A stretch of DNA of 64,000 nucleotides from Symbiodinium natans (Eukaryota; Sar; Dinophyceae; Suessiales; Symbiodiniaceae). The first letter of the stretch is position 1. Every line of letters begins with the position of its first letter. A model generated the notes under the pieces. That model did no database searches, was not told where the DNA came from, and saw only the letters and a program-made list of their open reading frames with translations. The DNA lies in the NCBI GenBank assembly GCA_905221605.1, contig CAJNDS010000031.1, positions 92,501-156,500 of the forward strand, read 5' to 3'. Both the position numbers and the translations under genes were made by a program. Below are positions 4,284-62,652 of the stretch, in pieces.

Positions 4284-4304
4284 GGACGAGGATGACTATG
4301 ATTC

Positions 4305-5417: not shown

Positions 5418-5510
<93 letters not shown>

Positions 5511-5728: not shown

Positions 5729-6610
5729 GGCCAAGATTCTCGGAAGGTCGTTGCATCAGCCGTTCTGCGCGCCTCCAATGCGGCCGTCTTGCCAGCAATG
5801 CTCTCCTGGAAGTGAAATGATTCTTCCGTTCTCCCGGCGGATGGCGGGGAAGGAGGGGGGGGGGGGGGGGTACCTGCTGCATGCCCTGCCAGCCAAGGGT
5901 CGATCAACATCCCGATGGTCATTCGAGATGGGAAGCCGTGTGGATTAAAGAGGATGTCGGGAGTGAGCCCTCCCTCGGTGAATGGCATATCTTCGCCCGG
6001 CCACAGCACGCTCATCACACCTTCCAGGCAGACTCTTCAAAGGTTTACCCCATCAAATGACAACTGCAAGTACTGCCCGATGACGATTGCTGATGCTGCG
6101 CACGCGTCTTTCGGCATTGCCAGCCTTTCTGCCCATGACGCGAAGAGAACTTGTCACCCACGACTGGGTTCCGTGTGTAGCGCAGTTTCCTCGAAAGAGC
6201 ACATCGCAAACGGAACAGCGGCGCTTTCATTCGAAAACATCGCATGTTGAAGCGAGGCTCAGCAAAGCACGTCTGCACCGTTGCGACCCAATGACCTCGC
6301 GGCCATCCAGCTTCACAACCTGCTCAACGTAAGCTGGTTCATCGTCCTCATTGGCTGCTGGAATCTTCAGAAAGCTACGGCAGCTACGTGGCCAAATCGG
6401 GCTACTAAACCTCCTTTCCTGCACTCTAGCGCTTGTCAAGTACGAGTCCTTGTACTTCTCGATTTTGTGCTCCCCTCTGTAGTCGACTGTGCAATACAAG
6501 TGGTCGTCCCTCTGGAGATATGTCCCGACAGGTGGGAAGCCATCGTCATCCAAATGCCTCAGAGGCGGAAAATCAGACGCCCTCTTTGCTCTTGCTTTTT
6601 CACGTCCCAG
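5729..6610 (-). CDS. RPA2: RPA2 3'-most visible exons (hybrid-binding/wall region)
   Basis: Blocks: about 6570-6450 ([20 protein letters not shown]); about 6345-6290 ([16 protein letters not shown]); 6189-6125 ([20 protein letters not shown]); 6020-5902 ([13 protein letters not shown] to GMLI); 5805-5729 ([23 protein letters not shown]). The join 6125/6020 is GC-AG (G|GT = Gly). The join 5902/5805 needs a GA donor (ATC|GACCCT) and gives [14 protein letters not shown] as in other Pol I subunits. That last intron, 96 bp, contains a C run directly after GGTACC. One or two small exons between 8288 and 6610 were not resolved, with weak candidates near 8.06 and 7.95 kb. The final exon stops at a GTGAGA donor, so more exons must follow. 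Confidence 0.9.
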
Positions 6611-9600
6611 ATTCGGTGAAAACCGCTGAACGACACCACCTTTCGTCTCAGCATTTGAGAAGCGGTTGAGATCCTGCAGGAGTGTGGAGCAAAGCCTGGA
6701 AACTGGTTGGAATAGGAATGCAGTCATAATTAACTCAGTGGTCTACGCTCTCCGTGCTCCTGCTGGTCCTTGCTGGAAAGCTTTTCACACGCATCTAGAA
6801 TCTTGGTTTTGTACCTGCCAGTGCAGGGGTGCAGTCATCCCGTGCCAAGTCTTCACACAGATTGCAAAGCACTTTGAGCTTTGATTTGGCACAAGGTCAC
6901 TGGTTAACTGTGCTTTAGGATGCCGCATGTTGTGCAAGGCGAGCGCTGTCAACAGGCAGCCTGCATGCATAAACATATCCTACCAGTGGAAGGAAGTACA
7001 CGAAGGGGGCAACGGCCACAGGATGTCACAGGCGCTCCTTCCGCGAACATCGTGGGGCACAGAAGGGCGACGTGCATTTTGGCGAGCCGCCCAGGCCCCA
7101 GGGTTTGCCGGCAAACTCTACAATAGCCGAGCTTGACAAAGCTCGCAGAAGGCCAGGTGCTTCAACAGGTACTGTAGGAGAAGACGAGATCAGTTGTGGG
7201 TGCGAGGCTTGCTCGGCTACGGAGTCCCCTTGTTGAGAAAACCCAAAGATGCAACAACGCAAAGCAAGTCAAAGCTGCAGGCGAAACGGTTCTGAAATCA
7301 CGGCAGGACAACAAGAAAATGAGGGCGAGAACCGGCGCGATTTACCCTCCACAGCCCTGCAAGCTGCAAGTGGAAAGCCAAAAAAGGAGCAACGATTACG
7401 CAAGAAGGCAAGATATTATATTGCAAGATGCAGCTGGCAAGAGTGCGTGATTGTTTCCGGACTACCACCAGACACACGGCTAACCAGAACACTTCGCGCA
7501 CACCGTGGTGCCGGATGGACTTTGGTGGTACATGGGTGGCACGATGTCGTTGCGGTCAGATTGATTTGATCTTTTGGTGATGCTAGGAACGGCTGCCAGT
7601 CATGCGCCCAACTGGTGGACCTACGAGGACGTCGGGTATCGCCCGGATCTGACAGGAACATGGCCGCATCTTGCTGGTTGCTACCGCTACCGCCGTCGCA
7701 GTGCCACCATTCCCTAGATCTCGATTCGACCGATGGCCACAAAGTACCGTGGCACCGTCGCCTGGACGTGGAAGCTCTAAAGCATTTCATGCAAACACGT
7801 GTGCGCACTTCTGGTCTGCGTGGCCATCCGTTGATGCTGAAAGGAAGCATGCGCTCTGACAGGGTCATTTCCGGGTAGTGGAGCATCATTGTGATGGTTC
7901 AGTGAGACCATGCGGAGATCGTCGTGCTACATCGGCTTCTGTATGCTCCTGTTCTTCTCTTTCGAAATCCCGAAATCCCAAGGCGCAAGGAAAAGCAGCT
8001 GTACAAGTTCGCTCAATTTACCCGAGACATGCCGAAACCACAGCTTGCTGGACGTACTTGCGCGTGAACGACATCCTCGGAATTCGAGTACCGTGCCGGC
8101 AGGCGTGGCATCAGGAAGGTGCTCCCAGTGTGTGAACAGAGTCATAGACAGACCAGGAAAGGAGGCCCCCGTCTCGGACCAGTCTTAGCGTCATGGTTGC
8201 TATTCTGGGTACTCCCAGTTATCCGAACACCCGACCCAAGGCCGGAATCTGAACTGACTTCACCAGGTCACACGACGCCATGCCCGAAGCCCCGTTCGTA
8301 CGACTGCTTGTTGATGATCATGGCATCCTCCATGTCGTATCCTGACCCAGCTAACGGGAGGCATTAATGCAGTAACGAAACCAGCAGCGGATTGACTCCG
8401 TGTGTTCTTGCGCATTTTTTCTTGCCACCCGTCCTGTGTATGTGATCACGGCAACAACTGCGTTCGTTCCAATGGGATGCTCATCACAATCCACCCTGTC
8501 GTACCTGTCTCCAGCTCTAGAAATACCAGCGCCACAGCTTCACCCTAAGAGTACTAGCTGACACCCTGGTTCTGCTCTGCCGAGTTGCATTTCGGTCCTG
8601 ACGAGCGGGCTCTGGGGGCACCACACGCGGAAGACCTTGTTGTCTGGGCGGAAGTCGTGGTTGTGATACGGTGTGGCCATCGTCTGCTTGAGCATCTGGC
8701 ACTGGTACCTCGCAGTACTTTGCAGAAGCCCGGTGACCTGCCTGGACCTACTCAGAAACCCACGGTGCCGTCGCACAGAAAGCTGCCAAGTTGCATGTTT
8801 CTTGGGCTTTGGTTGTGGTTGGAGAACGGTGTCAAGGCTGCCAACGTGGAAAAGAGTTCGGTTGGCTGGAGCTCTTCATGCGTAAACCTCATGTCAGGCA
8901 CTGCAGACAATAGATTCAGATATTCTTCTGCTACTCCCTAGCGTCACTTGCCTGGCCCACTCAGATCCACTCAGAAACACAACTGGACATTGGGAAGTTG
9001 CCCTCACGCCTAGGAAGAAGACCACAACAGTAAAGACGATACTGCCCGCCTCAAGGGTAACTGCTCAGGCACGTCATCCTTCATGTCCTCCTCCATGCAG
9101 ACAGCCCCAGTGCCAGTCTCTAGAGTCTTTTTGTGTAGAGCCTAGGCTACGTACACCCTAAACCCTAAACCCTAAACTTCATAGAATGGGCCTCTGCGCG
9201 TGGCTGGTCCAGCAACATCTGCGCTGCCTCTTTCTCGCTGCGTAGAACCGACACGCTGAGGAAAAGCTGCTCCAATGGCCTGGGCCCATGAAAAGTAAGG
9301 GGATGCTGCCTCTTTAAATATGAAAGGCCAATAAAAAAAAACAATAATCATAATCATAATCATAATCATAATCATAATAGTAGCAGTAATAATAATAATC
9401 ATGATAATCATGATAATAACAATCATCATCATCATCATCATCATCATGACAAAAAAAATAAGGCAGGTTTTGGGGGACCACCAGAACGGCAGGGTTTCTT
9501 TCTGCTGCCGAAGCTGCCCAATCCACTCTGTCTGACCCGTGCGCAAGCAGCGCACGGGGCGGATCAGCCGACCAGGCCCCAGGAAGACGAAGAGGCCCAC

Positions 9601-12600: not shown

Positions 12601-15600
12601 TTTGTTCGATCTGTGGAAAAGTTACTTCGAGTCAGAGCGGCATGACACACAGCGTACTGAGCTTTAGCCAACCATCTTCAGTGTGGACCAGGAAGAACTT
12701 CCTGACCATCCACTCACCAATCTCCTGCACCAGTGAAACATAAGAAAATATCAAAGTCCAGTCTCACAAACGGAATCTGCCGACCCTCTCTCGCTCTCCC
12801 TTCCCGGAGAGGCGCCAGTGAAGTGCTCGTTGGTTTCTATTCTCCCCTGGTCTTCCTATTGGAAGGGCTTTTGGGTCGCCCAAAACACCCCTCCAAGGTC
12901 TTCACCCACATCTCCCCCCTCCCCCAACCCGCCAGCCATACTCGCTACTTGGTGAGCCACCCCACCACACAGGGACCCTGTTCGACACGCACTTCTTTTG
13001 TGTCCCGTTCAACGCGGAACAGGACGTGTCGAAGGGGTACCATGGGTGGCAGCTCAGCCCACCAAGAAGCCCGCGGGACCAGCATCGTGAGCATCAGTGG
13101 CCATGCCGTGGACGCCATGAGGCAAGCCTCCTGTCCGGTGCCTCCACTGCCGGCCCTTGAGTGCAGCCCCTTGAAGAAACTTGCAACGCAGAGCATCGCA
13201 GAGCAACACATGCATCGGCGCATCGGAGGCCCTAGGCCCTAGGCTTGCTCTCCTCATCGGTGTATCTTCTGGGCACCTCGCTCCCGAGGACGATGCGGAA
13301 GGTGCGGCCAAGATATTGCCGAGCGTCGCTCATGCCACCTTGGCACCAATCATGGCAGGATAACGGGAAGCTGCTCAAGGGCGGTGGCGTCAGAGCCCTC
13401 ATTTTTCTACAGTCTTCGTGTTTTGTACTGTCCAGGCGCCAATGCGTAGCTTGGCATTCTGCTGCTGCAGCATCACCAATACCTTGTCTGCGTTTGATCC
13501 ACGAATTCGGAGCAGCCGAATCAAAGCAGCAACAACTTGCTCTACAAGGCTATGCAAACTGCCGTTCAATTGACTTCCCGACTCTGCAGCAACGAAAATG
13601 GGCGGGAGTACAGAATGGCATGAAATAGAAGGCGATCTAGAGAATCTGCGTATGACCAGCAGTCATGGCTGCCTTTGCATCCCGTCAACAAGACTTGTAA
13701 GTGTGGAAAGGCATTGTGATCCTCGACCCAAGTGAGACAAAAAAAGGCAGCTTTTGTGATTTTCTGGGTCCAAGCAAAACAAAACCCCTTCTGCGCCGGC
13801 AGGCTGTCTCCCAGAGGTCATGGTTCGGGCCAGGCTCGTCCCCTGCTTCGCTGTCGGGCACGCCACCTCCTGCTTCCGCAGTCAAGCCACGCAGGAGCAC
13901 CTAAACCCTCAGCCCTCAGCCCTAAACCCTAAACCCTACCCTACATTGGACCAAATCCAACAAGCAAAATCCCGAAAAAACCATTGCCACTCCCCCCAAG
14001 TCCTGCAAACATCTCGACGAGGAGCCGATCTGAGACCTGACCCAGGACTCAAGAGATCTGGGGGTTTACGATATCCCCCCTGATTCTTAGCCAGTATTAG
14101 GGGTACCCGATTGGGGTCCTTAGTAGAAGGGAATCTCCCTATTGGGGGTCGATTAGGGGTTCCCCTATTTTCGTAAACCCCCATCGAGAGAATCGGATGT
14201 TGACAGAGGTTAAACCCTAAACCCTAAACCCGAAACCCTAAACCCTAAACCCGGAACCTGGTAGAGGCTGTGGGCCACCACGGACAGCGGGATGAGCCAC
14301 TCCTCCCGGCCGTGGCTGAAGCGCAGGTTGCACGATCCATCCACGCAGTAGTGTAGCCTGCCCAATGTAGGGTTTAGGGTTTTAGGGTTTAGGGTTCAGG
14401 GTTTAGGGTTTGGGGTTTAGGGTTTGGGGTTTGGGGTTTGGGGTTTCTTTAGCAGCCCTTCAAGGACCAGAACAGCGGATACCACTCCATTGCCAAGCAG
14501 CGTGTTTGTCTGAGTAGTTCCATCAGACCTGCAGCACCTCATTAAGACCGCATGGGCGGTATACAGTTTGCCACGATTCTTGTATGACGGCCGCGTGATA
14601 GCCATCGGATAGTTTGAACCTCGACACATGTTCACAATGGCCAAGAATTACAGGGGGGGGGTCTCGAAACTACACCACCTCCGAAAGGTCCTTCGCAAAA
14701 GAAATTGACTGCGTCGAGAGGCGTGGCATCACGAGTAAGCGAACTACACGCTCGAGGCCCCGAAGCAAGAAGTAGCCTCCAGATTCCGTGCCTGTGCCAC
14801 TTTGACGCGAGTAAGAAGATTCGATTTTATCTAAAAATGTCTTAATATCTTGCCAGACTCATACCGGATCTTCATTGTTGGGGTGACAATTTTGTACAAA
14901 TGTATATGGTGCCCCATGTATCCATGCTTTCTGTTTCAGGTAATTTCTCTGCACCGCCAAATGGCTGCTTCAGAAGCTAGATAAATCCCACATTCACTCG
15001 AAACCCAAACCAAAACAAGATGCCACGGAAGCAACGAAATACTGCATGGAGAACTTCCTGGAAACCAAAACCAAAAAAACATGCAGCGATCACTATGTCG
15101 AAGCCCAGACGAAAAAACAAAGCCAACAAAACTGCAGGGAGACTTTGGCTTCGGTTTCTGGAGAAATCCTCCTGCATCTTGGCTTTAGTGATTTCGGTTA
15201 TTTGGCTTACTCCCTTCTTCTGCTTCCTTTTTTCCGGTCTTGATTTCGAGGAAATTCTAGGCTTAGGGTTTGGGGTCAAGAGCCGAGGGCTGTTTGACAT
15301 CCAACTTAGATGGGCATCTTGATTTTCATTGTCCCTAGGGAATGTGCCTCTTTTGCAGTAGTGCAAACGTTGCAGTTGCTGCCAGGGTGCAGTCCTCCCT
15401 GGCCTCGACCAGCTTTTCCTGGCTGAGGCCGTGGAGGTTGCACTTCTTCGAGCGCACCATGATCTGCACACGGGGAAAAGCTAGGGCAGACACCAGAGCT
15501 TAGGGTTTAGGGTTTAGGGTTTAAGGTTTAGGGCTTAGGGTTTAGGGTTTAGGGGGTTAAGGGAACTCTGTCAAAGGCTCCGTGATGTGATGTGACATCT

Positions 15601-15691: not shown

Positions 15692-17790
15692 CTGCTTGGG
15701 CGTGTCCTTTCATTCAGGGTCCCTCTCCAAGACCCTGAAACCTTGCGGGCCCTGCTGGCTGGAACCTGAAGCCCCGGAAAATCCTAAGCCCCGTGGATCG
15801 AAGTCCTGATGCAGGGCTCGGAGTTCAATGTTGCCAGGCGAGAAGGCGGAGAGCGGGTGCAATATTAGAGTGGTGACATGAGGTGATGGCCAAAAAGTTC
15901 ATTGAGGGAATAGTTGCGCCTGTGGTTTCGGTAGGCAAAGCCGCTGATGCTTATGCTGCCGCTCAAGAATGGATTGCAGTGCGGCCACGAACTCAGCGTG
16001 CTTGCCAAAACTCCGAAAGCAAGAACAAAAACACAGTGCCATAAACCCGAAAAAAACCCTAACCCCTAAACACTACAACCTGTAAACCCCAAACCCTTTA
16101 AACTTTAAACCCTGCATCCCGAAACCCTTAACCCTAAACCCCTAAGCCCTAAATCCTAAACCCTAAGCCCTAAGCCATATAAGCCCTAAGCCCTAAGCCC
16201 TAAGCCCCAAGCCCTAAGCCCTAACCTAAGCCCTAAGCACAAACTGGCACCCCAAGCCCTCTGACAGTCCCAGCTTCCAGGGGCTCTTCTTGCCCATCCG
16301 GCACTCGAAGGTGGCCGTCAGCGCTCCTCCGTAGGTCGAGTGGGCCATTCGGCAGTCCTGGGCTGCTCTTGGGTCATACCTCCTAAACCCTAAACCCTAA
16401 ACCCCAAACCCGGAACCCTCTAGTCATAATGGGTCATGAGGGGTCCGAATGGGTAAGACTATGTCCATAATGGGTAAGAATTTGGGTCATCATGGGTAAG
16501 GTGATTTTGGGGCCAAGCGTTCGAAGGTCAAAAGTGGGACAATGCGCTGTGTCAAGCGTCAAGATTCAGTCAATGGAAAGTCACTGGGGTCAGCGTGACT
16601 TCTGTATACTTTCGATGCTTAGACTTGTGCTTGCGAGTACTTCTTTGGCTTGCAACGTCGCATACTTTACCGAGGCCTGGGGCAGTAGGTGTTTGGGGAG
16701 CCAAAAGCTGGTACCCCTCTTCTAACCCCTCCCCAACGGCACGCCAGATTGCACCCATTCATTTGGCACCTTTTTTGCTTGGAATGGGTACCCTCCCTCC
16801 CTAGCCGACAGGGAGCGGACGGTGCATCAGGACCAGCGAGCATTTGGGCCCGACCGCTGCGTGGTGGGCGGCCCCCCCCCCCCCAGCCTCCACCCTGCCC
16901 CCCAGCTACCCGGACCCTGGTAGTTTTTCTTGTTTTGCCACTTCCACAAATATGGGGTGCCAGCAAGGGAATCACTGCACCAAGCCTCTCAAAGCCCTGA
17001 AGCCCAAGAGTACCTTCACATCCGGGATCTCCGGTCTGCCGCTGCGTAGGCCCCGGCCGAGGCGGGTCGCGCAGCGTAAGCTACACAATTAAGACTTAGT
17101 AGTTCATGCAGGGTGCAGATGGCAACCATTTCCTTGTGAGGACGACGTCCGACTCGCCGCCTGCGAACAATACAGGGACCACTACGCCGACATACGCCGA
17201 CTAAGCCATGTGCCTTCTGCTTTGTGATCTGGGTGGGCTTTGTTCACCGGCTTGGAGATCAACAGCTCGGAAAGATAGACCGTCCTTACCAGCAACCCCT
17301 TTGCAAGAATCTTCGGGAATACATCGAGAGCTCCCCTCTCGCTCTTTGGCGTATGGAAGCTTGAAGATGAAGCTTGAAGATGAGGCTACAATAAATGAGT
17401 CACAGCATCAGGCTGTCACTCCCATCATCGTCCGGAGGCTCCACTTCCAGACTAGATAAACCTTCAACGAGTCCTTGGCTCAAGGTCTCTTTGCCACAAC
17501 TTGTTCACACTGCACCTGCAATCACCTACCCTGTCCTGCCCTCGTGGGCGGAAATCCCACATTACGCGCGAGCGTCGATCCAGACCATGATCCAAGAAGG
17601 CGTCGAAGGATGCGACGTGGTTGCGTACTGCGTGGCTGAGCATCCCTCGCCCATGGTGGGCCTGATCAGCCAGGACTAAGCGCTGTGCTCCATGTAAGTC
17701 TGCATATGTCTGCATGTACCTCGACAGCAGATCGCACTCAGCATTGACCCGAGCTGCCGCCGCTGTGCTTTCTGCCGATGCTCCGGCCAT
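5729..17790 (-). CDS. RPA2: DNA-directed RNA polymerase I subunit 2 (RPA2/POLR1B), about 27 exons found
   Basis: Second-largest, catalytic subunit of nuclear RNA polymerase I, which makes the large rRNA precursor in the nucleolus. Identified by reading the minus strand exon by exon against the family. Signature stretches in the right order include [95 protein letters not shown] and [19 protein letters not shown]. The form [15 protein letters not shown] separates Pol I from Pol II (which has NPHAIPSRMTIG). From about 11.5 to 8.3 kb nearly all exon phases join without a break, so the gene looks intact there. Translation most likely starts at 17790 (MAGASAES). The C-terminal clamp/zinc-ribbon part (about 240 residues in other eukaryotes) was not found below 5729. 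Telomere-type repeats fill several introns. Confidence 0.95.
5806..5901 (-). other. 96-bp RPA2 intron with GGTACC-poly-C
   Basis: The flanking exons fix this intron. Read on the coding strand it starts GACCCTTGG, contains AGGTACC followed by about 17 C, and ends TTCCAG. The GGTACC-(C)n string is the same as at the ends of the (TA)n-flanked elements at 56.9-61.3 kb, but without the TA repeat. Confidence 0.7.
8288..10998 (-). CDS. RPA2: RPA2 exons around the hybrid-binding and active-site region
   Basis: Exons: 10998-10960 ([13 protein letters not shown]); 10886-10781 ([19 protein letters not shown] through LPETWGFL); 10232-about 10090 ([17 protein letters not shown]); 9847-9739 ([15 protein letters not shown]); 9654-9518 ([29 protein letters not shown]); 9279-9178 ([17 protein letters not shown]); 8887-8795 ([21 protein letters not shown]); 8708-8589 ([20 protein letters not shown]); 8504-8434 ([19 protein letters not shown]); 8341-about 8288 ([18 protein letters not shown]). 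The junctions from 9847 to 8341 all keep phase. YDMEDAM and the following Asn-Lys belong to the active-centre region of multisubunit polymerases. Confidence 0.93.
9154..9177 (-). repeat. Telomere-type tract that starts an RPA2 intron
   Basis: Plus strand CCCTAAACCCTAAACCCTAAAC. On the coding strand the exon ends ...ATGAA and the intron begins GTTTAGGGTTTAGGG, so the first telomere-type unit supplies the GT donor. The phase to the next exon (AA|G = Lys, giving [11 protein letters not shown]) supports this boundary. Confidence 0.8.
9333..9455. repeat. (AATCAT)/(CAT)n trinucleotide tracts in an RPA2 intron
   Basis: AATCAT hexamers at about 9345-9380, a TAATAA stretch, then (CAT)n at about 9423-9450. 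They lie in the intron between the exons ending at 9518 and starting at 9279. The poly-Met, Ile-Met and Asp frames across them are not coding. Confidence 0.9.
11090..13583 (-). CDS. RPA2: RPA2 central exons (lobe to external regions)
   Basis: Exons: 13583-13483 ([19 protein letters not shown], fit moderate); 13338-about 13253 ([24 protein letters not shown]); 12724-12642 ([17 protein letters not shown]); 12366-about 12315 ([17 protein letters not shown]); about 11905-11848 ([13 protein letters not shown]); 11746-about 11650 ([15 protein letters not shown]); 11527-11456 ([19 protein letters not shown]); 11156-11090 ([11 protein letters not shown] to LDLMQ). The exon pairs 12724/12366 and 11527/11156 join in phase, giving LCVM-FQKLMG and CDIQ-KRMENF. 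The stretch 13.05-13.22 kb, which has a long open frame, is intronic. Confidence 0.85.
13905..13946 (-). repeat. Short CCCTAAA tract
   Basis: CCTAAACCCTCAGCCCTCAGCCCTAAACCC and a few more units, in the RPA2 intron between 14258 and 13583. Confidence 0.85.
14211..14257 (-). repeat. Telomere-type tract at the start of an RPA2 intron
   Basis: On the coding strand the exon ends CTCTACCAG and the intron begins GTTCCGGGTTTAGGGTTTAGGG. The tract again begins within 10 bases of the donor. Confidence 0.8.
14258..17790 (-). CDS. RPA2: RPA2 N-terminal exons (protrusion and lobe)
   Basis: Exon 1, 17790-about 17530, runs [16 protein letters not shown] to [13 protein letters not shown] and ends at CAGG|GTAGGT. 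A probable exon lies at about 17310-17215, frame uncertain. Next: 16379-about 16266 ([18 protein letters not shown]); 15463-about 15375 ([13 protein letters not shown]); 14791-14723 ([18 protein letters not shown]); 14619-14502 ([17 protein letters not shown]); 14357-14258 ([13 protein letters not shown], ending LYQ). The 14722-14620 and 14501-14358 introns are GC-AG and keep phase (C|GT for Arg, AC|G for Thr). The joined reading [17 protein letters not shown] matches the Pol I family closely. I could not fix the residues between HGL and YDPRAAQD. Confidence 0.9.
14364..14452 (+). repeat. Telomere-type tract making up most of a 144-bp RPA2 intron
   Basis: TTTAGGG/TTTGGGG units fill about 85 of the 144 bases between exons 14619-14502 and 14357-14258. 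Here the plus strand reads TTTAGGG, so the repeat is antisense to the gene, opposite to the tract at 14211. Confidence 0.85.
15498..15556 (+). repeat. Telomere-type tract in an RPA2 intron
   Basis: Six to seven TTTAGGG-like units (TTTAGGG, TTTAAGG, CTTAGGG) just upstream, in gene direction, of the exon starting at 15463. Confidence 0.9.
15650..15689. repeat. (AG)n microsatellite
   Basis: Pure GA repeat of about 38 bases inside the RPA2 intron between the 16.3 and 15.4 kb exons. Confidence 0.95.
16050..16262 (-). repeat. Degenerate CCCTAAA/CCCTAAG tract
   Basis: About 25 units drifting from CCCTAAA to CCCTAAGC. It ends next to the exon carrying [15 protein letters not shown] second short tract (16381-16412) directly precedes that exon, and on the coding strand the unit TTTAG-GAG|G provides the acceptor. 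Confidence 0.9.
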
Positions 17791-33424: not shown

Positions 33425-36400
33425 CAGGCTTGCCGCTCCCACCCCCACCCCCCACCCCCACCCACCCCGCCATTCCCCATGGTCCCATGGCCCCAGCCTT
33501 CTACCATAGGCCCTAAGCTGAGTTTTAAGGGCTCCAGTTCGCACTTGCTCCACTTCCCCCCCCATGACCCTCTGGCCCCATGGCTTCATGGCCCCAGCGC
33601 CCCAGGGCCCTACCCCCATGGTTCCATGGCACTATAAGGGCTCCAGTGCGTGCCCGCTTCCTCCACTCCCCCCGACCGCTCCCCATGGCCCTCTGGCCCC
33701 ATGGCTTCATGGCCCCAGCGGCCCAGGCCCACCCCCAGGTCCATGGCCCTCTGGCCCCACGGCTTCATGGCCCCCGCAGCCTGGCTCCAGCCTTCTATCA
33801 AAAACGCTTCCTCCACTGCGCCCGACCACTCTTTCATGCCCTCTGCGGCCCAGCCCTGACACGCGCATGGTCCAGGGCCCTACCCCCATGGTCCCATGGC
33901 TGGCCCCATGTCCCCAGCGCTTCAGGGCCCTACCCCCATGGTCCCATCCCTACCCCCATGGTCCCATGGCCTCAGCCTTCTTACCCTGGCTATGGCTTCA
34001 TGGCCCCAACAGCCCAGGCCTGTCCCATGGCCCCAGCCCCCAGCGGCCCAGGGCCTACCCCCAGGTCCATGGCCCCGGCCTTCGCCTACCGTGTGCCCAA
34101 GACCCAGCCTTTTGCCAGTTGCTCCACCCGCCCCCACCCCACCCCCTCACGGACAAGGCAATGATTTAAAGGGTTCCAGCACACGCCCGCCCTCCCTGTG
34201 CCCCATGCCCTTGATGCGAATTCTTGACGGCTCCCGTGCATGCCCGCGCCCCCTCCGTTTTCCCCCGCCCGCTCCGCCCCCCCCCTCCTCACCCCCCCAC
34301 CCCCACCACCCCCAACCCCACCCCCACCCAACCCCCACCCCCACCCCCCCCCCACACCCCCCCCCCCACACACCCCCCCACCCCACCCCACCCCCCCCCC
34401 CACCCACCCCCCACCCCCCCCCCCCACCACCCCCCCCCCACCCCCCCCCCCCCCCCCCCCCCCCCCCCCACCCCCCCCCCCACAACCCCACCCCCCCCCC
34501 CCCCCCCCCCCCCCCCCCCGCCCACCATCCCCCCCACCACCCCCCCCACCCCCCACCCGCCCCCCCCCCCCCCACCCCCCACCCCCCCCCACCCCCCCAA
34601 ACCCCACCCACCACCCCCCCCCCCCACCCCCCCCCCCCACCCCCCCACACCCCCCCCCCCACACCCCCCCCCCCAACACCCAGCCACCCCACCCCCCCCC
34701 ACCCCCCCCCACCACAACCCCCCGCCCCACACCCCCCACCCACCCCCCGACCCCCCACAACCTCCCCTCCCCCCCAACCACCCCATGGCCCTCAGCCTTC
34801 TTACCAGGCTCCAGTGCATGTTCGGCACCCGCCCTCTCCGCCCTGGCTGCCCTGGATATGGCTTGCCCCATGGCCCCAGCCCGCAGCGGTCCAGGGCCGT
34901 CCATGGCCCCAGCCTTCACCAGCCTTCACCACACCCCGCATTCCCATGACCCAGCCTTCTGCCAGTTGCTCCACCCGCCCCCACCCCAACCCCTCACGGA
35001 CAGCACATTGATGCTAATTCTGAAGGGCTCCAGTGCATGCCCGCGCCCCCTCCGTTTGCCCGCTCCGCCCCCCCCCCCGCCCCACCCCCACCCAACCCCC
35101 ACCCCCACCCCCCCACCACCCCCCCCCCCCCCCACCCCCCCCCACCACCCCCCCACCCCCCCCCCACCCCCCCCCCCACCCCCCACCCCCCCCGCACACC
35201 CACCCCCACCCCCCCCCCCCCCCCACCCCCCCCCCCACCCCCCCCCACCCCCCCCACACACCCCCACCCCCCCCCCCCCCACCCCACCCCCCCCCACCCG
35301 CCTTTACCAGAGCAATGCCTGCTGGCCCTCTGACCCCATGGCTTCATCCCAGGCCTCTTCCATGGTTGAGTTTTAACGGTTTCCACCCGACCGCCCCCAT
35401 GGCCGATCATGGCCCCACAGCTTTCATTGCTTCCTCCACTCCCCTCGACCGCTCTGCATGGCCCTCTGGGTCCATAACCCCAGCGGCCCAGGGCCTACGC
35501 CAGGTCCATGGCCCCAGCCTTCACCATGCCCAAGCTGACACCTCCATGGCATCTACAAACCCCATGACTTCATGGGCCCAGCGAGTTTTAAGCGCTTCCT
35601 CCACTTCCCCCCGACCGCTCCCCATGAGCGGCCCAGGGCCTACCCCCCCCCCAGGTCCATGGCCCCAGCCTTCACCATACCCAAGCTGAGTTTTGGGGCT
35701 CACCCCCCATGGTCCCATGCCCGCCCTCTCCGCCCACTCCCCATGGCTGGCCCCATGGCTTCATGGCCCCAGCGCCCCGGGGCCCTACCCCCATGGTCCC
35801 ATGGTTCAGCCTTCTACCATAGGCCCCAAGCTGAGTTTGAAGGGCTCCAGTGCCATTTTCCTCCACTCCCCCCGCCCTCTCTGCCCACTCCGACTGCTAC
35901 CCATGGCCCTCTGGCCCCATGGCTTCATGGCCCCAGCGGCCCCAGGCCCTAAGCTGAGTTTTAAGGGCTCCAGCGCATGCCCCGCTTCCTCCACTTTCCG
36001 GGACCGCTCCCCATGGCCCTCTGGCCCACGGCTAGGGCTCACCCATGGTTCAGCCTTCGGCCCCAGCGGCCCAGGGCCTACCCCCAGGTCCAGCCCCGGC
36101 CTTCACCATGCCCAAGCTGAGTTTTAGGGCTCACCCCCATTCTAACATGGCCCAGCCTTCTGCCATGGACCCTAAGTTGCTCCACCCCGCCCGCCCCAGC
36201 GCCCCTTCAGGGCCCTACCCCCATGGTCCCATGGCCCAGCCTTCTACCATAGGCCCTAAGCTGAGTTTAAAGGGGTCCAGTGCATGCTCCAAGGGCATGC
36301 CCGTTTCCTCCACTCCCCCCGCCCTCTCCGCCCACTCCCACTGCTCCCCATGGCCCTCTGGCCCCAGCGGCCCTAGGCCCTAAGCTGAGTTTTAAGGGCT

Positions 36401-37070
36401 CCAGCGCATTCCCGCTTCCTCCACTCCCCCCCCCATGGCTACTCCCATGGTCTTCTGCCATAGGCCCTAAAGTTGTTCATGGCCCCAGCGCCCCAGGGCC
36501 CTACCCCCAGGGTCCCATGGCCCCAGCCTTCTACCATAGGCCCTAAGCTGAATTTTCAGGGCTCCAGTGCATGCCCGCTTCCTCCACTCCCCCCGCCCTC
36601 TCCGCCCTCTCCCACCCCATGGCTTCATGGCCCCAGCGGCCCAGGGCCCTACCCCCATGGTCCCATGGTCCAGCCTTCTACCATTGAACTGAGTTTTAAG
36701 GGCTCCAGTGCATGCCAGCTTCCTCCACTCCCCCCGACCGCTCCGCATGGCCCTCTGCCCCATGGCTTCATGGCCCCAGCGGCCCAGGGCCTTCCCCTAT
36801 GGTGCCAAGGGCTCCAGTGCATGCCCGCTTCCTCCACTCCCCCCGCCCTCTCCGCCCACTCCGACCGCTCCCCATCATGGCCCTGGCCCCATGCTTCATG
36901 GTTTCAGCGGCCCTAGGTAAGCTGAGTTTTAAGCCGGGACCGCTCCCCCCCACAATCCCCCACCCCACCCGCCCATATGCCCCCCCCTCCACCTGCCTTC
37001 CGCCCCCCCACCCACACACCCCCCACCCCCCCACCCCACCCCCCCACCCCCCACCCCCCCTCCTGTCGGG
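33425..37070. repeat. C-rich minisatellite array with poly-C cores
   Basis: Variable units of about 105-165 bp containing GGGCTCCAGTGCATGCCCGC, TTCCTCCACTCCCCCCGACC, GCCCTCTGGCCCCATGGCTT, TACCCCCATGGTCCCATGG and TAGGCCCTAAGCTGAGTTTT. The marker GGGCTCCAG recurs at about 33528, 33639, 35027, 35839, 35965, 36398, 36560, 36701 and 36809. Two segments, about 34285-34785 and 35070-35300, are almost only C with single A interruptions. Proline-rich and glycine-rich frames up to 378 codons are translations of the repeat. There is no splice or codon evidence for a gene. Confidence 0.93.
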
Positions 37071-46092: not shown

Positions 46093-47863
46093 TCAGAAAA
46101 ATCTATAGTCAAAAACGCCAGCTTTACGCTTGCGCTGTGGGGGCGTTCCCAGCTGAAGCAGGCAGTTCATCAAAAAGCAAGACAGATCTGGATGCTGAGT
46201 TGCGATTTGAGTCAGCTCCTCCTTGTGTATCTTCAAGACCCTGCATTCATGAGCTTCTACCATTTGCTGACAGTTCTTCTCTAGCAGGCTGCCACTTCCA
46301 TGCACCTGCTTCATGAACATGAGGACGTTGCTCTCAGAGAGCAAAGTCTCCAACTCCGCATCTGCCTGTTCGACAAGGCCCTGCAGCCGACATCGATCTG
46401 CAAAGCGCCGAACAGAGAATGCGAACTCCACATCACCCTCAGCGCAGAATGTGTTCATGAGCAAGAACAACAGCACTGCCCGTATCGTGGCAGTTGTTGC
46501 TTGAGGATCATTGGTCAGATCGATCTCGTTGCGAAGTCCCTCTTTCCATTGCGCACCAGTCAGCATCGTCTTGAAGTACTCCGACCGGGCCACGAGAATT
46601 CGTTTGTCGAAATACTGCGGTGGTCCATCAGCCAATAGAATCTTACAGAGGGCGGACTCTTCACTGAAATCAAGAGCGTGGAAAAGGGCAGGAGGCGCAT
46701 CTTCGGAAAGTGCGAGCAGCGGAAAATCGACAGAAGCATGTACCGTAAATTCTCTCTCGTCAAGCCAGTCTGCGGGGCAAACGTGGAACCACCCTCTCGC
46801 ACAGCTGCGGAACCTATCCCCATTGAAGTTGAAGCTGGCAGACCGGTCCCGGGACCAGCCTTCGGCAAGCAGTGTCGCCTGGGTCATCTGAGTGCTTCTC
46901 AATACGTTTAGGTTTAGTGGGCCCTTTAGGGGCCTTGGGGGGGGGGGGTACCATATATATATATATATATATATCTATATATATATATATATACATACAT
47001 ATACATATTCGAGGGATATATTATGGGGATTGTAAGGGTCGCTTTTTCCAGGCTTTAGTTTAGGGATTATTTTGAGAAACTACCATACAAAGTGGATATG
47101 AGAACTTCCGGGGGTTGATGTTGTCCAGGACTTAGGGATTAGGTACCTTGCATATGGGGTTGGTACGCCATCATATCTTGAAAGCATTCAGAAACAGTCT
47201 AGGTCACCGTACAATGCACATCATTGACGGCCCAATGGTCTTGATGATCTGTGGTCATCTCAATGTAAATTCGAACATTGCCGGCATACTTACTCACATG
47301 AAGCCTCCAGGCCAATGAGTTTGGAGGCCCAATCTCACAAGAAGCCAAAGTTGAATTGGGCTCGCCGTCGCCTGGAAGTTCCGATCTCTTGAAAACCATT
47401 TCCGTGTGCTCCCGGCGCCTGCTGCGGCGCGGCGGTCCCACGAATGCCTTGCCGCGGATATGAAGCTTATCGATAGAGATGTCAAGGTCCTTGCCGCCGC
47501 AGCAGTAATGATTGAAGTCCACGACATCACCGAATCCTGCTGAAGGCGACGTGTCCGTGAAATCGAAAGTGCTGGACCGGACTGCAAGCTCTTGTCCTTT
47601 TTCGGTCGAGATGTTCAGCTGGAAGCACACATTCCTACAGGACCATCGGCTGCCTTGGAGCTGCTCTGGAGGAAGCATTTCCATATACACACACAAGCGA
47701 CAGTCATCGTCGTAGCAATCCCAGCATGTCTCTCCCGCGGGATACACCATCAACCGCATGCGAAACGAATCTGTCTGGTGGCTGCTCTCCGTGGCGACAC
47801 AATCGCAAAGGTCATACTTGTGAACAAAATCGGCGATGGTTGTCTCTATCTCGTCGTGCCATC
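46093..47863 (-). CDS. MATH-MATH-BTB domain protein (probable cullin-3 adaptor)
   Basis: Two exons, 47863-47208 and 46878-46093, joined ACG|GTGACC...CCCAG|GCG in phase 0 (VHCT-ATLLAEGW). The first MATH domain is RMRLMVYPAGETCWDCYDD, CRLCVYMEMLPP, VCFQLNISTEKGQELAVRSS, GFGDVVDF. A second starts AWRLHVSKYAGNVRIYIEMT, continues across the intron to RSCARGWFHVCPADWLDERE and ends FTVHASVDF. The BTB/POZ domain follows: DGPPQYFDKRILVARSEYF, KTMLTGAQWKEG, LLFLLMNTFC, ADRCRLQGLVEQADAELE. MATH domains usually bind substrates and BTB binds cullin-3, so a ubiquitin-ligase adaptor role is inferred. It ends with a clean TGA after a basic RKRKAG stretch. The 5' end is incomplete: an in-frame stop at 47870 next to an AG acceptor shows an earlier exon must exist. 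Confidence 0.88.
46879..47207 (-). other. Intron of the MATH-BTB gene with a (TA)n-GGTACC-poly-C terminus
   Basis: A 329-bp intron. In plus orientation it contains GGGCCCTTTAGGGGCC (palindromic core), a G12 run, TACC, then (AT)n to about 46993 with ATACATACATA interruptions. This G-run/GGTACC/(TA)n order is the same as at the ends of the elements at 56.9-61.3 kb. Only one terminus is present. Confidence 0.75.
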
Positions 47864-56880: not shown

Positions 56881-57049
56881 GCAAATATATATATATATAT
56901 ATGGTACCCCCCCCCCCCCCCCAGTGACCTACCCTTTTTCGCCTTGTCTCAAGTCACAGCTGCACTGCAAGCAAACTCGGTGTGCAATATAGCGTATTTC
57001 CTAGGGCGTAGCCTAAAATACAACTAAGATCGCATACACGGGACAGTAG

Positions 57050-57324
57050 AAAAACCAAAAATACCAAAACCAAAAAAACCAAAAAACCAAAACCAAAAAA
57101 AACAAAAAAAAAAAAAACAAAACCAAAAAAACCAAAAAAAACAAAACCAAAAAAACCAAAAATACCAATTTTCCGGGACTCTCAGGAAAATCCTATGAGG
57201 CTTCTCCAAGAGCGCCAGAAAATTGGTGTTTTTGGTATTTTTGGTTTTTTTGGTTTTGGTTTTTTTGGTTTTTTTGGTTTTGGTATTTTTGGTTTTTTGG
57301 TTTTGGTATTTTGGCTTTTTGGTT
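57050..57324. repeat. Long inverted repeat of (CCAAAAA)n and (GGTTTTT)n
   Basis: The left arm (57050-57173), AACCAAAAATACCAAAACC..., ends ATACCAATTTTC. The right arm starts GAAAATTGGTGTTTTTGG (57217) and runs to 57324. The loop is 43 bases (57174-57216). The arms are about 110-120 nt and could form a long hairpin. The Phe/Trp-rich frames over it are repeat translations. Confidence 0.9.
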
Positions 57325-57354
57325 CGCCTTCACGGTCACGAGGCAACAACTACG

Positions 57355-58040
57355 CATTTTTAAGTGTGCTTATGCTAATTGTGCTTTTCAAAAATAGTAT
57401 ACAAGTGGTCTTTCTAGTGCTTCAGAACTTTTTGTTTCGTTATCATGTAAGTAGAGCCGCTAGTGTTTAGTGCATCTTTTGGTTGCACTCAAGTGTAGTA
57501 GACCTTATTCAGCCATTACTTGGTGCTCTGGTAGCTAAATTCGCATGGATAATATTTGCCTGGTAAATGCGATTAATTATCTAGAAGCAGCATTTGCAAT
57601 ACTTGTCTTGAGAAAAAGCATTTATTGCTTAGAATTGTTTGCTTAAAAAGTGACTCCTACTCGTCCAGGGATACCCCAAAACCCTAAAATCCAAACTTCA
57701 CCAGAGATTCTCCTGAAAAGCTTGCGCTTTTGGATGTTTTTACGTATTTGTGAATTTGCTTGTGGTATGGCCTTCACTTTAGAAGTACTTTTCTAGGATT
57801 CTTGTGCATTTTTTAAGCCTGATTGTGCAAGTTGCGTTTTTCAAGCATAGTATATATGTGGTCTTTATTGAATACTTCAGACATCTTTGTTTCATCGTTA
57901 TGTAAGTAGAACCGATTTCCATTATTGTGCATTTTTAAGCTTGCTTATGCAAATTGTGCTTTTCAGACATAGTATACAAGTGGTCTTTAGTGAATACTTC
58001 AGCAATCTTTGTCTCATTGTTATGTAGGTAGAACCGTTTC
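57355..58040 (+). repeat. AT-rich satellite family A, three copies
   Basis: Copies at about 57355-57460, 57803-57914 and 57926-58036 share GCATTTTTAAG, CTTATGC, ATAGTATACAAGTGGTCTTT, ACTTCAG, CTTTGTTTC and TTATGTAAGTAGAACCG. The last two are tandem with a period of about 123 bp. Confidence 0.85.
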
Positions 58041-58054
58041 CATTTCCGCAAGTG

Positions 58055-58835
58055 TTTATTTCGTATTTGGTTGAGTATGGTCCTTTAAATAGTATTCACT
58101 TGAGTCAAATTGGGCTATTTGCTTAAGAATTCCTCTAGTAGTTAAATTCGCATAGAATGAATACTTCAAAAAAGATTGTTTCATGAATATGTAAACATAA
58201 GGTGTTTCATTTGACTTTGCAGATAGTATTTCAATAATACTTTGCCTGGCATAAACACAACTGTTTCAATGCATTAGTTGCTCAACAAAGCACTATTTGC
58301 CCTTTAAACCACACTTTGCCATATGTTGGTTGTATATGGTGCTTATTTCGTATTTTGGTTGAGTATGGTCCTTTAAATGGTATTCACTTGAGTCAAATTG
58401 GGCTATTTGCTTAAGAATTACTCTAGGAGCTAAATTCGCATAAAATGATTATTTCAAAAATACAAACGATTCATGAATATGTAAACATAAGGTATTTCAG
58501 TGGACTTTTCAGAGAGCATACTTTGCCTAGTACAAGCACAATTGTATAAATACAGTATTTGCACTTTAAACCCACACTTTGCCATATTTTGGTTGAGAAT
58601 GGTGTCTATTTCGTATCTTGGTTGAGTATGCTCCCTCAAATGGTATTCACTCGAGTCAAATTGGGCTCTTTGCTTAATAATTACTCTAGTAGCTAAATTC
58701 GCATAGAACCAAGAAAAATGTTTCACTATTTGATTAATACTTTGCCTCGTACAAACACAATTGTATAAATAAATTAGTTGCTCAACAAAACATTAATTGC
58801 CCTTTAGAACGCACAATTTGCATAGAAAAACACTG
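58055..58835 (+). repeat. AT-rich satellite family B, three tandem copies
   Basis: Starts at about 58055, 58343 and 58606 (periods about 288 and 263). Shared strings include TATTTCGTATTTTGGTTGAG, TATTCACTTGAGTCAAATTG, GGGCTATTTGCTTAAGAATT, AGCTAAATTCGCATA and CAACAAAGCA. A weak earlier copy may lie at 57470-57600 (GTAGCTAAATTCGCAT). Confidence 0.9.
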
Positions 58836-59337
58836 ATCTAAACATCTAAAAACAGCATTGTCCGCTTCAGATTCAAAATGTAGATTCTTCCAAATGCTGG
58901 CTTATCGGGGTCTGTGAGGTGGGTGTCCCAGTAACTGTCCTTCATTACCCGGTGATTAACTACGCGACTTTTGGGCCTTGTTTGTTATTTTTTGTTAAAA
59001 AGGCCTAAAAAGGCCTAAAAAGGGTAGGTCGCTGGGGGGGGGGTAGCATATATATATACATACATACATACATACATATATATGCTACCCCGCCCCCCTT
59101 ATCCACGTTTTTTTGTGGTTATCCACGCTGGTTGTGGTTGCGAGCCAATTAAATCGTTCACGGGCCGTGGTGACCCCTGAACTCCCCCCCCCAATAACCC
59201 AATCCTCTACAAAACGTAGATGTATGCAACTTGAGATGTCGAGTCCTCTCCATCTGTCCAAACACTGAGCACAGCGACCTCCTCCCCTCCCTTCCGCTCC
59301 GCTGCGCTCCCTGGTTTTTGTAAATGCTTTTTCTTTC

Positions 59338-60320
59338 AGGGCTTATCTCTAAAACCCTATCGGTTAAGGTTTAAGTCTTATAAAAAGAGACGCCCCGAAA
59401 CCCTATAGGGTTTAAGGCTTAGAGCCGATACGGTTTAGGGTTAAACCTGAAACCTGAACCTTTAGATCCATAGGGTTTCAAGGTTAAGAATTAAACCTAA
59501 ACCCTTAACCTTTAAATCCTATAGGGTTAATAGGTTTGAAGATTTAAGACCTAGGTATTTAAACCTAAGCCCATAGAGTTTAAACCTTAAGGGTTTACGA
59601 TTTAGGCATCTAAACCTGAACCCTTTAGGGTCAAGACCCTGAAAGCCTATAGGGCTCCAAAAGCCTCAAAAGTTTTAACCCCATAGGCGATGAAGGTACA
59701 CCTTAGGCTTTTAAGCCTTTGAACCCCATAAAGTCTAAAGGCTTAGGGCTTTTCAGGGTTTATCTCTAAAGCCCTCACGGGGGTAGCCCTACAGGGTTTG
59801 AACCCTCTAGGCCTATAGGGGTCAACAGTTTAGGGCTTAAGGTTTAGGCAATGCCTATAGGATCAGAGCCTGAAAAACCCTATAAGGCTTGAGGCGTAAA
59901 TCCCTAAACCTAAAATCCCATATGGTTATGCCTGTGTTTTTAGGGGTTGGTGGAAATGCAAAGAACAAGCAGGTATCGGGTTCAGAGGTTTAGGGGTCTT
60001 TAAGGTTTATAAGCCCATAGAGTTTAAACCATAAGGGCTTACGGTTTAGGCATTTAAGCCTAAATCCTAAGCCCTTCTGGGTCAGAACCCTGAAAGCCTA
60101 TGGGGCTCTAAAAGCCTCAAAAGTTTTAACCCTATAGGCGCGTGCCCAGACCTTAGGTCTTTAAACCCCTAAACCCCATAAAGTTTAACGGTTCAGGATT
60201 TTTCAAGGCTTATCTCTAAAGCCCTCACGGGGTTAGCCCTATAAAGTTTAGACCTACAGGCCTAGAGGGTTCAAAGGTTTAAGCTGGAGGCATTGCCTAT
60301 AGGATTAGAACCTTATAGCC
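59338..60320. repeat. 444-bp tandem duplication rich in CCCTATAGGG-like palindromes
   Basis: Copy 1 starts at 59570 (CCCATAGAGTTTAAACC) and copy 2 at 60014 with the same start. Both contain GGCATNTAA, GAACCCTGAAAGCCTAT, AAAAGCCTCAAAAGTTTTAA and TTATCTCTAAAGCCCTCACG in the same order. Copy 2 is cut at about 60320. The whole region is built of short AAACCCTATAGGGTTT-like units, as if derived from telomere-type repeat by inversion. Confidence 0.85.
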
Positions 60321-60549
60321 CTGTGTACGAACCACCTTTTACGTACTATTTGATGGTCCCGTTTCTCCTTTCAAACTTTTGAGGATTTTAAGGAATTTAA
60401 AGGACCCTTCAATTCTGCAAAACCCTCAAACTCCTTAAGATTTTGAAAGGCCTCCAGCCTTCAAAATTTTAAGGATTTTCAGGAATGCAAAAGGCCACTT
60501 AAATACTTTAAACTCCGAAAAAATTGAAAAATTGAAAACAAGCTAAATT

Positions 60550-60670
60550 ATTTTGGGAAAGGCCCGGCCCGTTTGAACTTTTTAACATCCGTAATTTCCT
60601 TAAATCCTTGACATTTTGAAACAAAATAATTGTTTTGGGAAAAGGCCCGGCCCAGTTAAATTTTCTAAAG
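60550..60670 (+). repeat. Direct repeat TTTTGGGAAAGGCCCGGCCC
   Basis: TTTTGGGAAAGGCCCGGCCC at about 60551 and TTTTGGGAAAAGGCCCGGCC at about 60633, each followed by an AT-rich AAATCCTT segment. Confidence 0.85.
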
Positions 60671-60700
60671 CCCTTGAAATCCTTCACCTGTCGAGACACA

Positions 60701-61036
60701 CGGGCCGGTACAAGCCGGTACAAAACGGTACAAGTTGTACAACCAAGAACCAAGATTGCAGGGAGGTCTTGCCCTGCAATCTTGGTTCTTGGTTCTTGGT
60801 TCTATGGGGCTGGTACAACTTGTACCGATTTGTACCGGTTTGTACCGGCCCGTATGTTGTGACAATATAGAGAGCGGTACAAACCGGTACAAATCGGTAC
60901 AAGTTTGTACCGGCCCCATGGAACCAAGAACCAAGATTGCAGGGCAAGACCTGCCTGCAATCTTGGTTCTTGGTTCTTGGTTCCAGTGGCTAGGGCCGGT
61001 ATAACTTGTACCGATTTGTACCGGTTTGTACCGGTC
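60701..61036. repeat. Two tandem near-perfect palindromes of about 155 bp
   Basis: Unit 1 is 60701-60852 and unit 2 is 60875-61036. Each is arm GGTACAAACCGGTACAAATC (and similar, 40-45 nt), then an inner hairpin with 22-24-bp arms (AACCAAGAAC + CAAGATTGCAGGG; 60741-60763 with 60772-60794, and 60920-60943 with 60954-60975), then the complementary arm CTTGTACCGATTTGTACCGG. Neighbouring arms of unit 1 and unit 2 are also complementary over about 43 nt (60805-60852 with 60875-60918), so several cruciform or hairpin forms are possible. The Tyr/Arg/Thr-rich frames over them are repeat translations. Confidence 0.93.
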
Positions 61037-61599
61037 TCTACTGGTGCAATATAAACATATAGATAAGCAACCAGATATAAAGAAAGAAAAAAACATAAAT
61101 CAACACGCTGGGACAAAGAAAACAAATCACGAACAAAAAGCAAGGAATACGCAGTGCCAGAACAAGAAAAAACACAAAACAAGCAGAAAATGTGTGGATA
61201 ACTGGGGGGTGGGTACCATATATATATATATATATATATACGTATTATGTATATATATATATATGAACTGAGTGCCATCGCACCGATGTGAACTGGCCTC
61301 TGCGAGCTGCCCGTCCGTGGCCGGGCCCTGGGCGTCGTGCCGCTTGTCTGGATGGTACCTCCGGGCGCAGCATACCAGAAAGCGGCTACCGGGTACCGGC
61401 TTTGACTAAAAACCGCCCACAGCCTGCGCTTGAAAATTGAAATACCAAATACCTGGTAGGATGCTCCCTGGCGACACTCAAGACGACCCGGACATCGCTG
61501 CTGCGACGAGCGAGAGAAAAAAAAACACACAAAAGATGACAAAAACAAAAGAGGAAGAGAGAGACCAGGAGGGGTCTGATAGTAAATTGTAACTAAACG

Positions 61600-62594: not shown

Positions 62595-62652
62595 TACCCT
62601 AAACCCTAAACCCTGACCCTGAACCCTAAACTTTAAACCCTAAACCCTAAAT
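62595..62652 (-). repeat. Telomere-type CCCTAAA tract
   Basis: Eight units of CCCTAAA with two CCCTGA variants. The interval 61830-63590 otherwise shows only weak coding signals (for example minus frame 63376-63053, GKVLWLAAVTASEPLKSIRA). Confidence 0.92.

What the first reader, a model, noticed from the sequence alone, without database searches (positions are those of the whole stretch)
56885..61264. Two abutting elements with (TA)n-GGTACC-poly-C inverted termini, a possible new class of TA-microsatellite-nested foldback element
Seen directly: three of the four boundaries read (TA)n then GGTACCC or GCTACCC then a C run, and each pair of ends is inverted and shares a private sequence (AGTGACCTACCCTTTTT for the first, TTATCCAC for the second). 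The two elements meet outward end to outward end across a shared TATACATACATA spacer. Interiors lack genes and are filled with satellites and palindromes, with composition unlike the flanks. Known analogy: some plant MITEs (rice Micron) sit inside TA microsatellites. That these are mobile, and move by recognising the TA repeat, is inference.
Basis: partly seen in the sequence, partly recalled or inferred. Interest (0 to 1): 0.9.

Follow-up and report, generated by a model that had tools for sequence, protein, structure and literature searches.

The report
Algal jumping genes inside TA repeats
Two back-to-back DNA segments in a dinoflagellate alga are non-coding members of a large, recently mobile group of jumping genes that sit inside TA-repeat tracts and whose full-length relatives carry a transposase of a bacterial type next to a helicase that resembles viral replication proteins.

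Summary
The window lies in a 759-Mb dinoflagellate genome (Symbiodinium natans or close kin). All four ends read (TA)n-G[G/C]TACC-polyC; each element has one GGTACC ("A") and one GCTACC ("B") end. Genome-wide the exact patterns count 536 A, 523 B and 3 with A/T at that base. Of 57 neighbouring pairs among listed ends, 49 are inward A/B, 0.9-6.2 kb. Copies of element 1 at four other loci are 94-95% identical; 12 of 13 elements tested have a foldback block beside the A end. A 6.2-kb element of this anatomy encodes ORF1 (unknown), ORF2 (Rep-like SF3-type ATPase) and ORF3 (zinc-ribbon DDD transposase; NCBIfam IS1595 in 17 of 37 homologues, best 2.8e-8; integrase fold). Among the 20 best ORF3 loci, 18 have ORF2 upstream and 19 a B end. 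Near-identical copies at different sites lose identity at the end. So these are non-autonomous DNA transposons of an IS1595/Merlin-like lineage housed in TA microsatellites. Such arrays are known from plant Mutator-like elements; I found no report of this transposase with a Rep-like helper. Empty sites and target-site duplications are untested.

The parts
56886..56902 (.). outer (TA)n tract at the A end of element 1
56903..59047 (+). element 1 (A end to B end), 2145 bp, non-coding; family with private end motif AGYGACCTACCC
   Evidence: L015 copy 95.0% identical over 2152 columns, from the C tract of the A end to the last base of the B end; L031 94.4% over 2026; L007 and L009 94-95% over the ~1.5 kb held (L011 is the same locus as L015)
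56903..56939 (+). A end of element 1: GGTACC-polyC-AGTGACCTACCCTTTTT
57050..57324 (.). A-side subterminal foldback block (inverted AAAACC/GGTTTT repeats; best pair 93-nt arms, 83% complementary)
57798..58821 (.). diverged tandem satellites (122-bp period; 263-288-bp spacing) in the interior of element 1
59017..59047 (-). B end of element 1: GCTACC-polyC-AGCGACCTACCCTTTTT
59048..59083 (.). shared (TA)/(CATA) spacer between the two B ends
59084..61217 (-). element 2 (A end at 61217, B end at 59084), 2134 bp, non-coding; family with private end motif TTATCCAC
   Evidence: A-end relative L025 83% over 139 bp; coding relatives with TTATCCGCG B ends at L039, L040, L053
59084..59107 (+). B end of element 2: GCTACCCCGCCCCCCTTATCCACG
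59334..60330 (.). degenerate telomere-like (AAACCC/GGGTTT) repeats, denser in the B half of element 2
60689..61040 (.). A-side hairpin modules of element 2: about 3 x 10-bp (GGTACAAACC-type) and 2-3 x 7-bp (AACCAAG-type) iterons in inverted order, two modules
   Evidence: 541 nt 60660-61200 as ssDNA: -164.5 against shuffle mean -58.7, sd 5.3, z -20
61191..61217 (-). A end of element 2: GGTACCCACCCCCCAGTTATCCACACA
61218..61264 (.). outer (TA)n tract at the A end of element 2
46946..46973 (-). solo A-type end ((TA)n-GGTACC-polyC) with no partner seen, between MATH-like and BTB-like ORFs

Best explanation
The two segments are non-autonomous copies from two families of one lineage of DNA transposons in a Symbiodinium genome. 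SHOWN: a unit bounded by an A end (GGTACC-polyC-private motif) and an inverted B end (GCTACC-polyC-same private motif), nearly always with a foldback block beside the A end, occurs at many different loci inside TA-rich microsatellites. A larger unit of this anatomy encodes, in order A end - ORF1 - ORF2 - ORF3 - B end, a Rep-like SF3-type ATPase and a zinc-ribbon DDD transposase of IS1595/Merlin type; ORF2-ORF3-B end recurs in other families. The private end motif tracks the transposase clade. INFERRED: ORF3 of a coding relative binds the private inverted ends, cuts at G[G/C]TACC and joins the element into TA-rich DNA. Any 8-bp duplication, as in IS1595/Merlin, would read ATATATAT and be invisible, and slippage afterwards changes TA and C tract lengths. 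New insertions land in TA tracts bordering older ones, which gives end-to-end arrays as in the window. ORF2 probably binds the A-side iterons/hairpins or melts the TA target and helps the transposase.
Against: 51 of 100 listed A ends had no exact-pattern B partner (the exact pattern is strict and also misses the real B end of element 2). Of 20 fetched loci 9 show no complete partner, and 3 of 28 loci (L014, L026, L029) carry the pattern without a C tract plus private motif, so 536 includes some non-elements (my reading). No empty site or target-site duplication was seen. The L027 ORF3 itself hits no Pfam or NCBIfam model; PF12762 matches 2 of 37, best E 0.067; Foldseek gives no PDB hit at E <= 1e-3 for ORF3. 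Non-coding interiors are not simple deletions of the coding copy: at >= 82% identity and >= 120 bp L024 and L027 share only about 0.7 kb at the A side. Some flanks (L016, L017) show no other microsatellite, and TA tracts could partly expand after insertion.
Confidence: 0.87

Rival explanations
1. The elements insert at short TA-containing sites, and the long TA (and C) tracts grow afterwards by repair synthesis or slippage; the microsatellite is then mostly a product, not the target (as reported for maize TAFT elements in PMC5907723 section 19).
For: Tract lengths differ between near-identical copies; C runs vary several-fold within a family, e.g. 9 against about 28 at the two ends of one element, L017. 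L040 and L053 have pure AT runs of only 4 and 6 bp outside the B end.
Against: Several flanks beyond the TA are other, compound microsatellites, which suggests a pre-existing repeat.
Confidence: 0.3
2. Circular or replicative cycle: ORF2 acts as a replication initiator on the A-side iterons, makes B-A-joined circles or concatemers, and ORF3 or recombination in TA tracts integrates them.
For: ORF2 resembles viral Rep proteins. Iteron-hairpin blocks sit at the A side. The C2074 locus holds two B ends joined head to tail to A ends by TATAAT.
Against: The junctions come from one tandem array, which unequal crossing-over also explains; a genome search for more such junctions did not complete. No conserved HUH pair or tyrosine is evident (H63 in 34 of 40; W150 in 35 of 40).
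Confidence: 0.25
3. The repeated motif is only a compound microsatellite ((TA)n-GGTACC-Cn) that arises by slippage, and the paired ends are coincidence.
For: TA and C tracts vary; solo or motif-less matches exist (46952; L014, L026, L029).
Against: Inward A/B pairing in 49 of 57, private inverted motifs, full-length dispersed copies and adjacent transposase.
Confidence: 0.01
4. Segmental duplication rather than transposition spread the copies.
For: One tandem cluster (C2074) and one tandem A-end duplication in L033.
Against: In the pairwise comparisons run (L035-L038 among themselves; L042 against L043-L047 and L049) identity stops at the B end and its AT-rich tract, and the flanks printed for 13 elements differ by eye.
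Confidence: 0.02

Closest known systems
Sy.m_F1 and other Merlin-like families of Symbiodinium (PMC8101967; section 11 read in full)
   Same: Transposase with weak DDE_Tnp_IS1595 match (E 2e-01 there), 5' region of tandem repeats duplicated in opposite orientation, imperfect TIRs in sister families, 5' TIR starting GG (as our A end)
   Different: Sy.m_F1 is reported with 8-bp TSDs, 51-bp TIRs and 2.57 kb; no helicase gene and no TA-microsatellite habit are mentioned in that section. Its sequences are not held here, so kinship is untested
IS1595 (ISXO2) family of bacterial insertion sequences
   Same: N-terminal zinc ribbon and DDE-fold transposase; NF033547 matches 17 of 37 homologues
   Different: Third acidic residue is D, not E; extra ORF2 and ORF1; A/B asymmetric ends; housed in TA microsatellites
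MuTAnT, SaTar and pineapple mt-MITEs (plants; PMC4486113 abstract, PMC5907723 abstract and section 19, PMC8449440 passages)
   Same: Elements flanked by TA microsatellites, many non-autonomous families, end-to-end non-nested arrays
   Different: Those are Mutator-like; none of 37 ORF3 homologues gave a MULE Pfam hit and the transposase here is IS1595-like
Rep proteins of CRESS-DNA viruses and parvoviruses
   Same: ORF2 has Walker A, B and an SF3-like C motif, and Foldseek ranks Vientovirus Rep and AAV Rep68 first
   Different: No conserved HUH pair or tyrosine evident; low TM-scores; encoded beside a DDE transposase in a chromosomal element with inverted ends
Teratorn (PMC10175614; listing and start of abstract only)
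   Same: A precedent for a DNA transposon combined with foreign genes; [quoted passage not shown]
   Different: 180 kb, piggyBac-like transposase

Membership tests
IS1595/Merlin transposase superfamily | IS1595-type catalytic domain | tested here: met
   NF033547 in 17 of 37 homologues, best 2.8e-8; PF12762 only 2 of 37, best 0.067; the L027 protein itself hit neither
IS1595/Merlin transposase superfamily | DDE triad in an RNase H fold | tested here: met
Merlin | 8-9 bp target-site duplication | tested here: inconclusive
   any duplication would be hidden in AT repeats
Merlin | TIRs start with GG | tested here: inconclusive
   A end GG but B end GC, 536 against 523 exact matches; the exact terminus is not proven
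Merlin | no N-terminal zinc domain; a single transposase gene | tested here: not met
   C96 36/37, C99 36/37, C119 37/37, C124 35/37; ORF2-type gene upstream in 18 of 20 loci
TA-targeting MULEs (MuTAnT/SaTar) | TA microsatellite on the flanks | tested here: met
   AT run of 11 bp or more within 40 bp outside the B end in 15 of 19 transposase-selected loci
TA-targeting MULEs (MuTAnT/SaTar) | Mutator-type transposase | tested here: not met
   no MULE Pfam hit at E <= 1 in any of 37 homologues; IS1595 hit instead
Rep/SF3 helicase | SF3 motifs A, B, C | tested here: met
Rep/SF3 helicase | HUH endonuclease with catalytic Tyr | tested here: inconclusive
   E1 DNA-binding domain prob 0.80, TYLCV Rep 0.57, none significant by E; candidate H63 34/40, W150 35/40 where a Tyr might sit

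The most novel reading that the evidence does not exclude
A eukaryotic transposon-replicon hybrid: a DDE-type transposon that carries its own Rep-like SF3 initiator/helicase and an origin-like block of family-specific iterons and hairpins at one end, moves through a replicated (perhaps circular) intermediate, and uses TA microsatellites as reusable docking sites so that elements pile up end to end.
Probability: 0.28. Interest if true: 0.9.

Novelty: new variant of a known kind. Interest (0 to 1): 0.76.

Why it matters
In the papers seen here, TA-microsatellite docking with end-to-end arrays is described for plant Mutator-like elements; a transposon with an unrelated transposase in a dinoflagellate shows the same habit, so the habit apparently arose more than once. 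The coding copies add a viral-Rep-like ATPase to a DDE transposon, with iteron-hairpin blocks whose sequence changes with the family, which makes a concrete test possible of whether an accessory ATPase chooses the target or replicates the element. Two coding families look very young (98.2-99.6% identical copies), so live movement might be caught in culture.

Tried and rejected
Rejected: chance or simple microsatellite; segmental duplication as the main route. Led nowhere: Rfam at gathering scores (0 hits); tRNA (0); TATATATGSTACCCCC in viral contigs gave 6 stretches that look unrelated. With the pattern-plus-tblastn tool the ORF3 profile found no relative in viral contigs or genome contigs and the ORF2 profile none in viral contigs. 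Pfam on ORF1-3: 0 families at E <= 1. PDB by sequence: none for ORF2 alone; profiles gave E 0.12 or worse for ORF3 and 0.9 for ORF2. PHROGs for ORF2: best E 0.031. Pfam for ORF2 homologues: AAA in 8 of 40, best 0.01, and IstB in 2 of 40, best 0.068. ORF1: 2 homologues. Neighbours of the 13 elements are not claimed to be free of Merlin: the PF12762 genome search did not complete.

Literature: searches (open-licence PMC library only). Searches held 0 papers; one search held 2 (Teratorn; thaumarchaeal elements), judged from title and abstract start; one search listed 15 of 116 and 12 of 96. Read: PMC8101967 passages and section 11 in full; PMC5907723 outline with abstract, and section 19; PMC4486113 outline with abstract; PMC8449440 and PMC8045281 passages.
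Full report
Setting. The window is G000:C31:92501-156500 of a 759,417,921-bp assembly in 2543 contigs.

The observation. Both elements are as described, with small corrections. ATATGSTACCC occurs five times in 64 kb against 0.02 expected. The runs of five or more TA in the window all lie at these ends or at the solo end near 46950. Element 1 is 56903-59047 and element 2 is 59084-61217; they meet B end to B end across a 36-bp TA/CATA spacer. Each element has one GGTACC end (A) and one GCTACC end (B).

It is a genome-wide system. TATATATATATGGTACCC occurs 536 times and the GCTACCC version 523 times; the reversed-pattern controls gave 0. With any base at that position the count is 1062, so only 3 ends carry A or T; that control also gave 3. 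Only the first 100 places of each search are listed. Using those 100 A ends and the 79 listed B ends on the same span of contigs, 57 neighbouring pairs lie within 12 kb; 49 are inward A/B pairs (24 A-first, 25 B-first) with median spacing 2184 bp and range 941-6185 bp. No inward A/A or B/B pair was seen. The 8 others are neighbours in other orientations, and 51 of 100 A ends lack an exact-pattern partner. The pattern is strict: it misses the real B end of element 2, whose TA run is too short.

Anatomy. I fetched 20 stretches of about 10 kb at listed A places besides eight 3-kb loci. By my reading, 11 of the 20 show a complete partner end (L030 with a variant GCTGCC end); 9 do not (L031 has lost the C tract of its B end, L019 holds 1001 N). 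In 3 of the 28 loci (L014, L026, L029) the pattern is not followed by a C tract and private motif. Behind the C tract each family has a private motif; I count nine families with the motif seen at both ends. Element 1 has copies at L007, L009, L015 (= L011) and L031 with 94-95% identity; L015 matches over its whole length (95.0% over 2152 columns). I tested 13 elements with both ends for inverted repeats, leaving out L021 (damaged A end, same family as L034) and L030. On the A side 12 of 13 have a long inverted-repeat block (alignments of 168-836 bp); L022 has only 28 bp. On the B side 8 of 13 have an inverted match, longer than the A-side one in three (L022, L008, L024), and 5 have none. The 13 include two members each of four families, and only the element 2 block was set against shuffles. 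In element 2 and in the coding element L027 the block is built alike from different sequences: about three 9-10-bp iterons and two to four 7-bp iterons in inverted order, repeated. As single-stranded DNA the element 2 block folds at -164.5 kcal/mol against a shuffle mean of -58.7 (sd 5.3).

Linkage and mobility. The ORF3 search of the genome gave 152 match rows. The 20 loci returned are the best rows, on 18 contigs and from only five motif families, so they are not independent. Of these, 18 carry an ORF2-type gene just upstream on the same strand (not L048, L054), and 19 a B end on the 3' side of ORF3 (L048, which is rearranged, has a variant GCTACG; none seen in L050); 15 of the 19 B ends have 11 bp or more of pure AT within 40 bp outside. 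These loci were chosen by protein, not by TA, so the TA association is not a selection effect. Four coding copies on different contigs are 98.8-99.5% identical over 3.3 kb, with identity ending at the B end and its AT-rich tract; six copies of another family are 98.2-99.6% identical to L042 with the same stop. The A ends of two of the four (C1783, C605) also lie in AT tracts next to CT and CATA repeats and lose identity there; the third stretch fetched (C2180) fell inside the element. In the tree of ORF3 from the 20 loci each private motif corresponds to one clade (L041 a singleton, L050 without a motif seen). So the private motif is very probably the transposase's own recognition sequence.

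The window's elements within this. Element 1's ends resemble those of the C2074 coding cluster (AGTGACCTACC, with GCCTTGTCTCA..GTCAC following on the A side). Element 2's B end resembles those of L039, L040 and L053 (TTATCC[G/A]CG...GTGGTTATCCA). Neither element encodes ORF2 or ORF3. They are therefore non-autonomous; that a coding relative mobilised them is inference.

Mechanism. Shown: unit, ends, dispersal, linked genes, residence in TA tracts. Inferred: ORF3 cuts and joins at the private ends; the target is TA-rich DNA; the ends of resident elements offer new TA tracts, producing abutting arrays such as the window, L036 (two B ends) and L016. An 8-bp duplication would be invisible. ORF2's part is open: target selector/melter in the manner of accessory ATPases, or replication initiator on the iterons. 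Two head-to-tail junctions joined by TATAAT in the C2074 cluster allow but do not prove a circular or concatemeric step.

Known relatives. PMC8101967 (section 11) describes divergent Merlin families in Symbiodinium; Sy.m_F1 has a weak IS1595 domain (E 2e-01), 8-bp duplications and inverted tandem repeats on its 5' side, so it may belong to the same broad lineage; I could not compare sequences. TA-microsatellite housing and non-nested arrays are described for plant Mutator-like elements (PMC4486113, PMC5907723, PMC8449440). The searches showed no paper pairing such a transposase with an SF3 helicase, judged from listings; only the open-licence library was searched.

What is missing. No empty site, no target-site duplication and no movement was observed. 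The own-genome searches with joined flanks, with ORF2, with PF12762 and with the junction pattern were sent and never answered.

Noticed in passing
window 46093-47759 (-): MATH-like (PF00917, E 0.0057) and BTB-like (PF00651, E 0.0022) ORFs, both below Pfam cut-offs, separated by a TA tract with a solo A-type end.
   Followed up: partly
L054/L052/L051 (G000:C2074, about 251-264 kb): Tandem cluster of coding elements with two head-to-tail B-A junctions GGTAGC-TATAAT-GGTACC.
   Followed up: partly
L033 8966 and 9077: Tandem duplication of an A end with its flanking GATA/TA microsatellite, 111 bp apart.
   Followed up: no
window 4794-5512: 719-bp hexanucleotide satellite (CGTGTG)n, open in more than one frame (overlapping ORFs of 314 and 349 aa on opposite strands).
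   Followed up: no
window 33438-37060: C-rich satellite region with periods such as 10, 48, 141, 221 and 430 bp, GC up to 0.77.
   Followed up: no
window, many places (e.g. 441-608, 14211-14446, 16054-16238, 62596-62651): Interstitial telomere-like (CCCTAAA)n arrays; degenerate versions also fill parts of several elements.
   Followed up: partly
P0061 (Pyramimonas, EukProt): An ORF3 homologue attributed to a green alga: horizontal transfer, wider distribution or contamination.
   Followed up: no
L016 about 3040-8564: A further A-type end abutting the first element, an ORF3 fragment in the frame 6874-7398 and a B end at 8564 with a different private motif; possibly a chimera.
   Followed up: no
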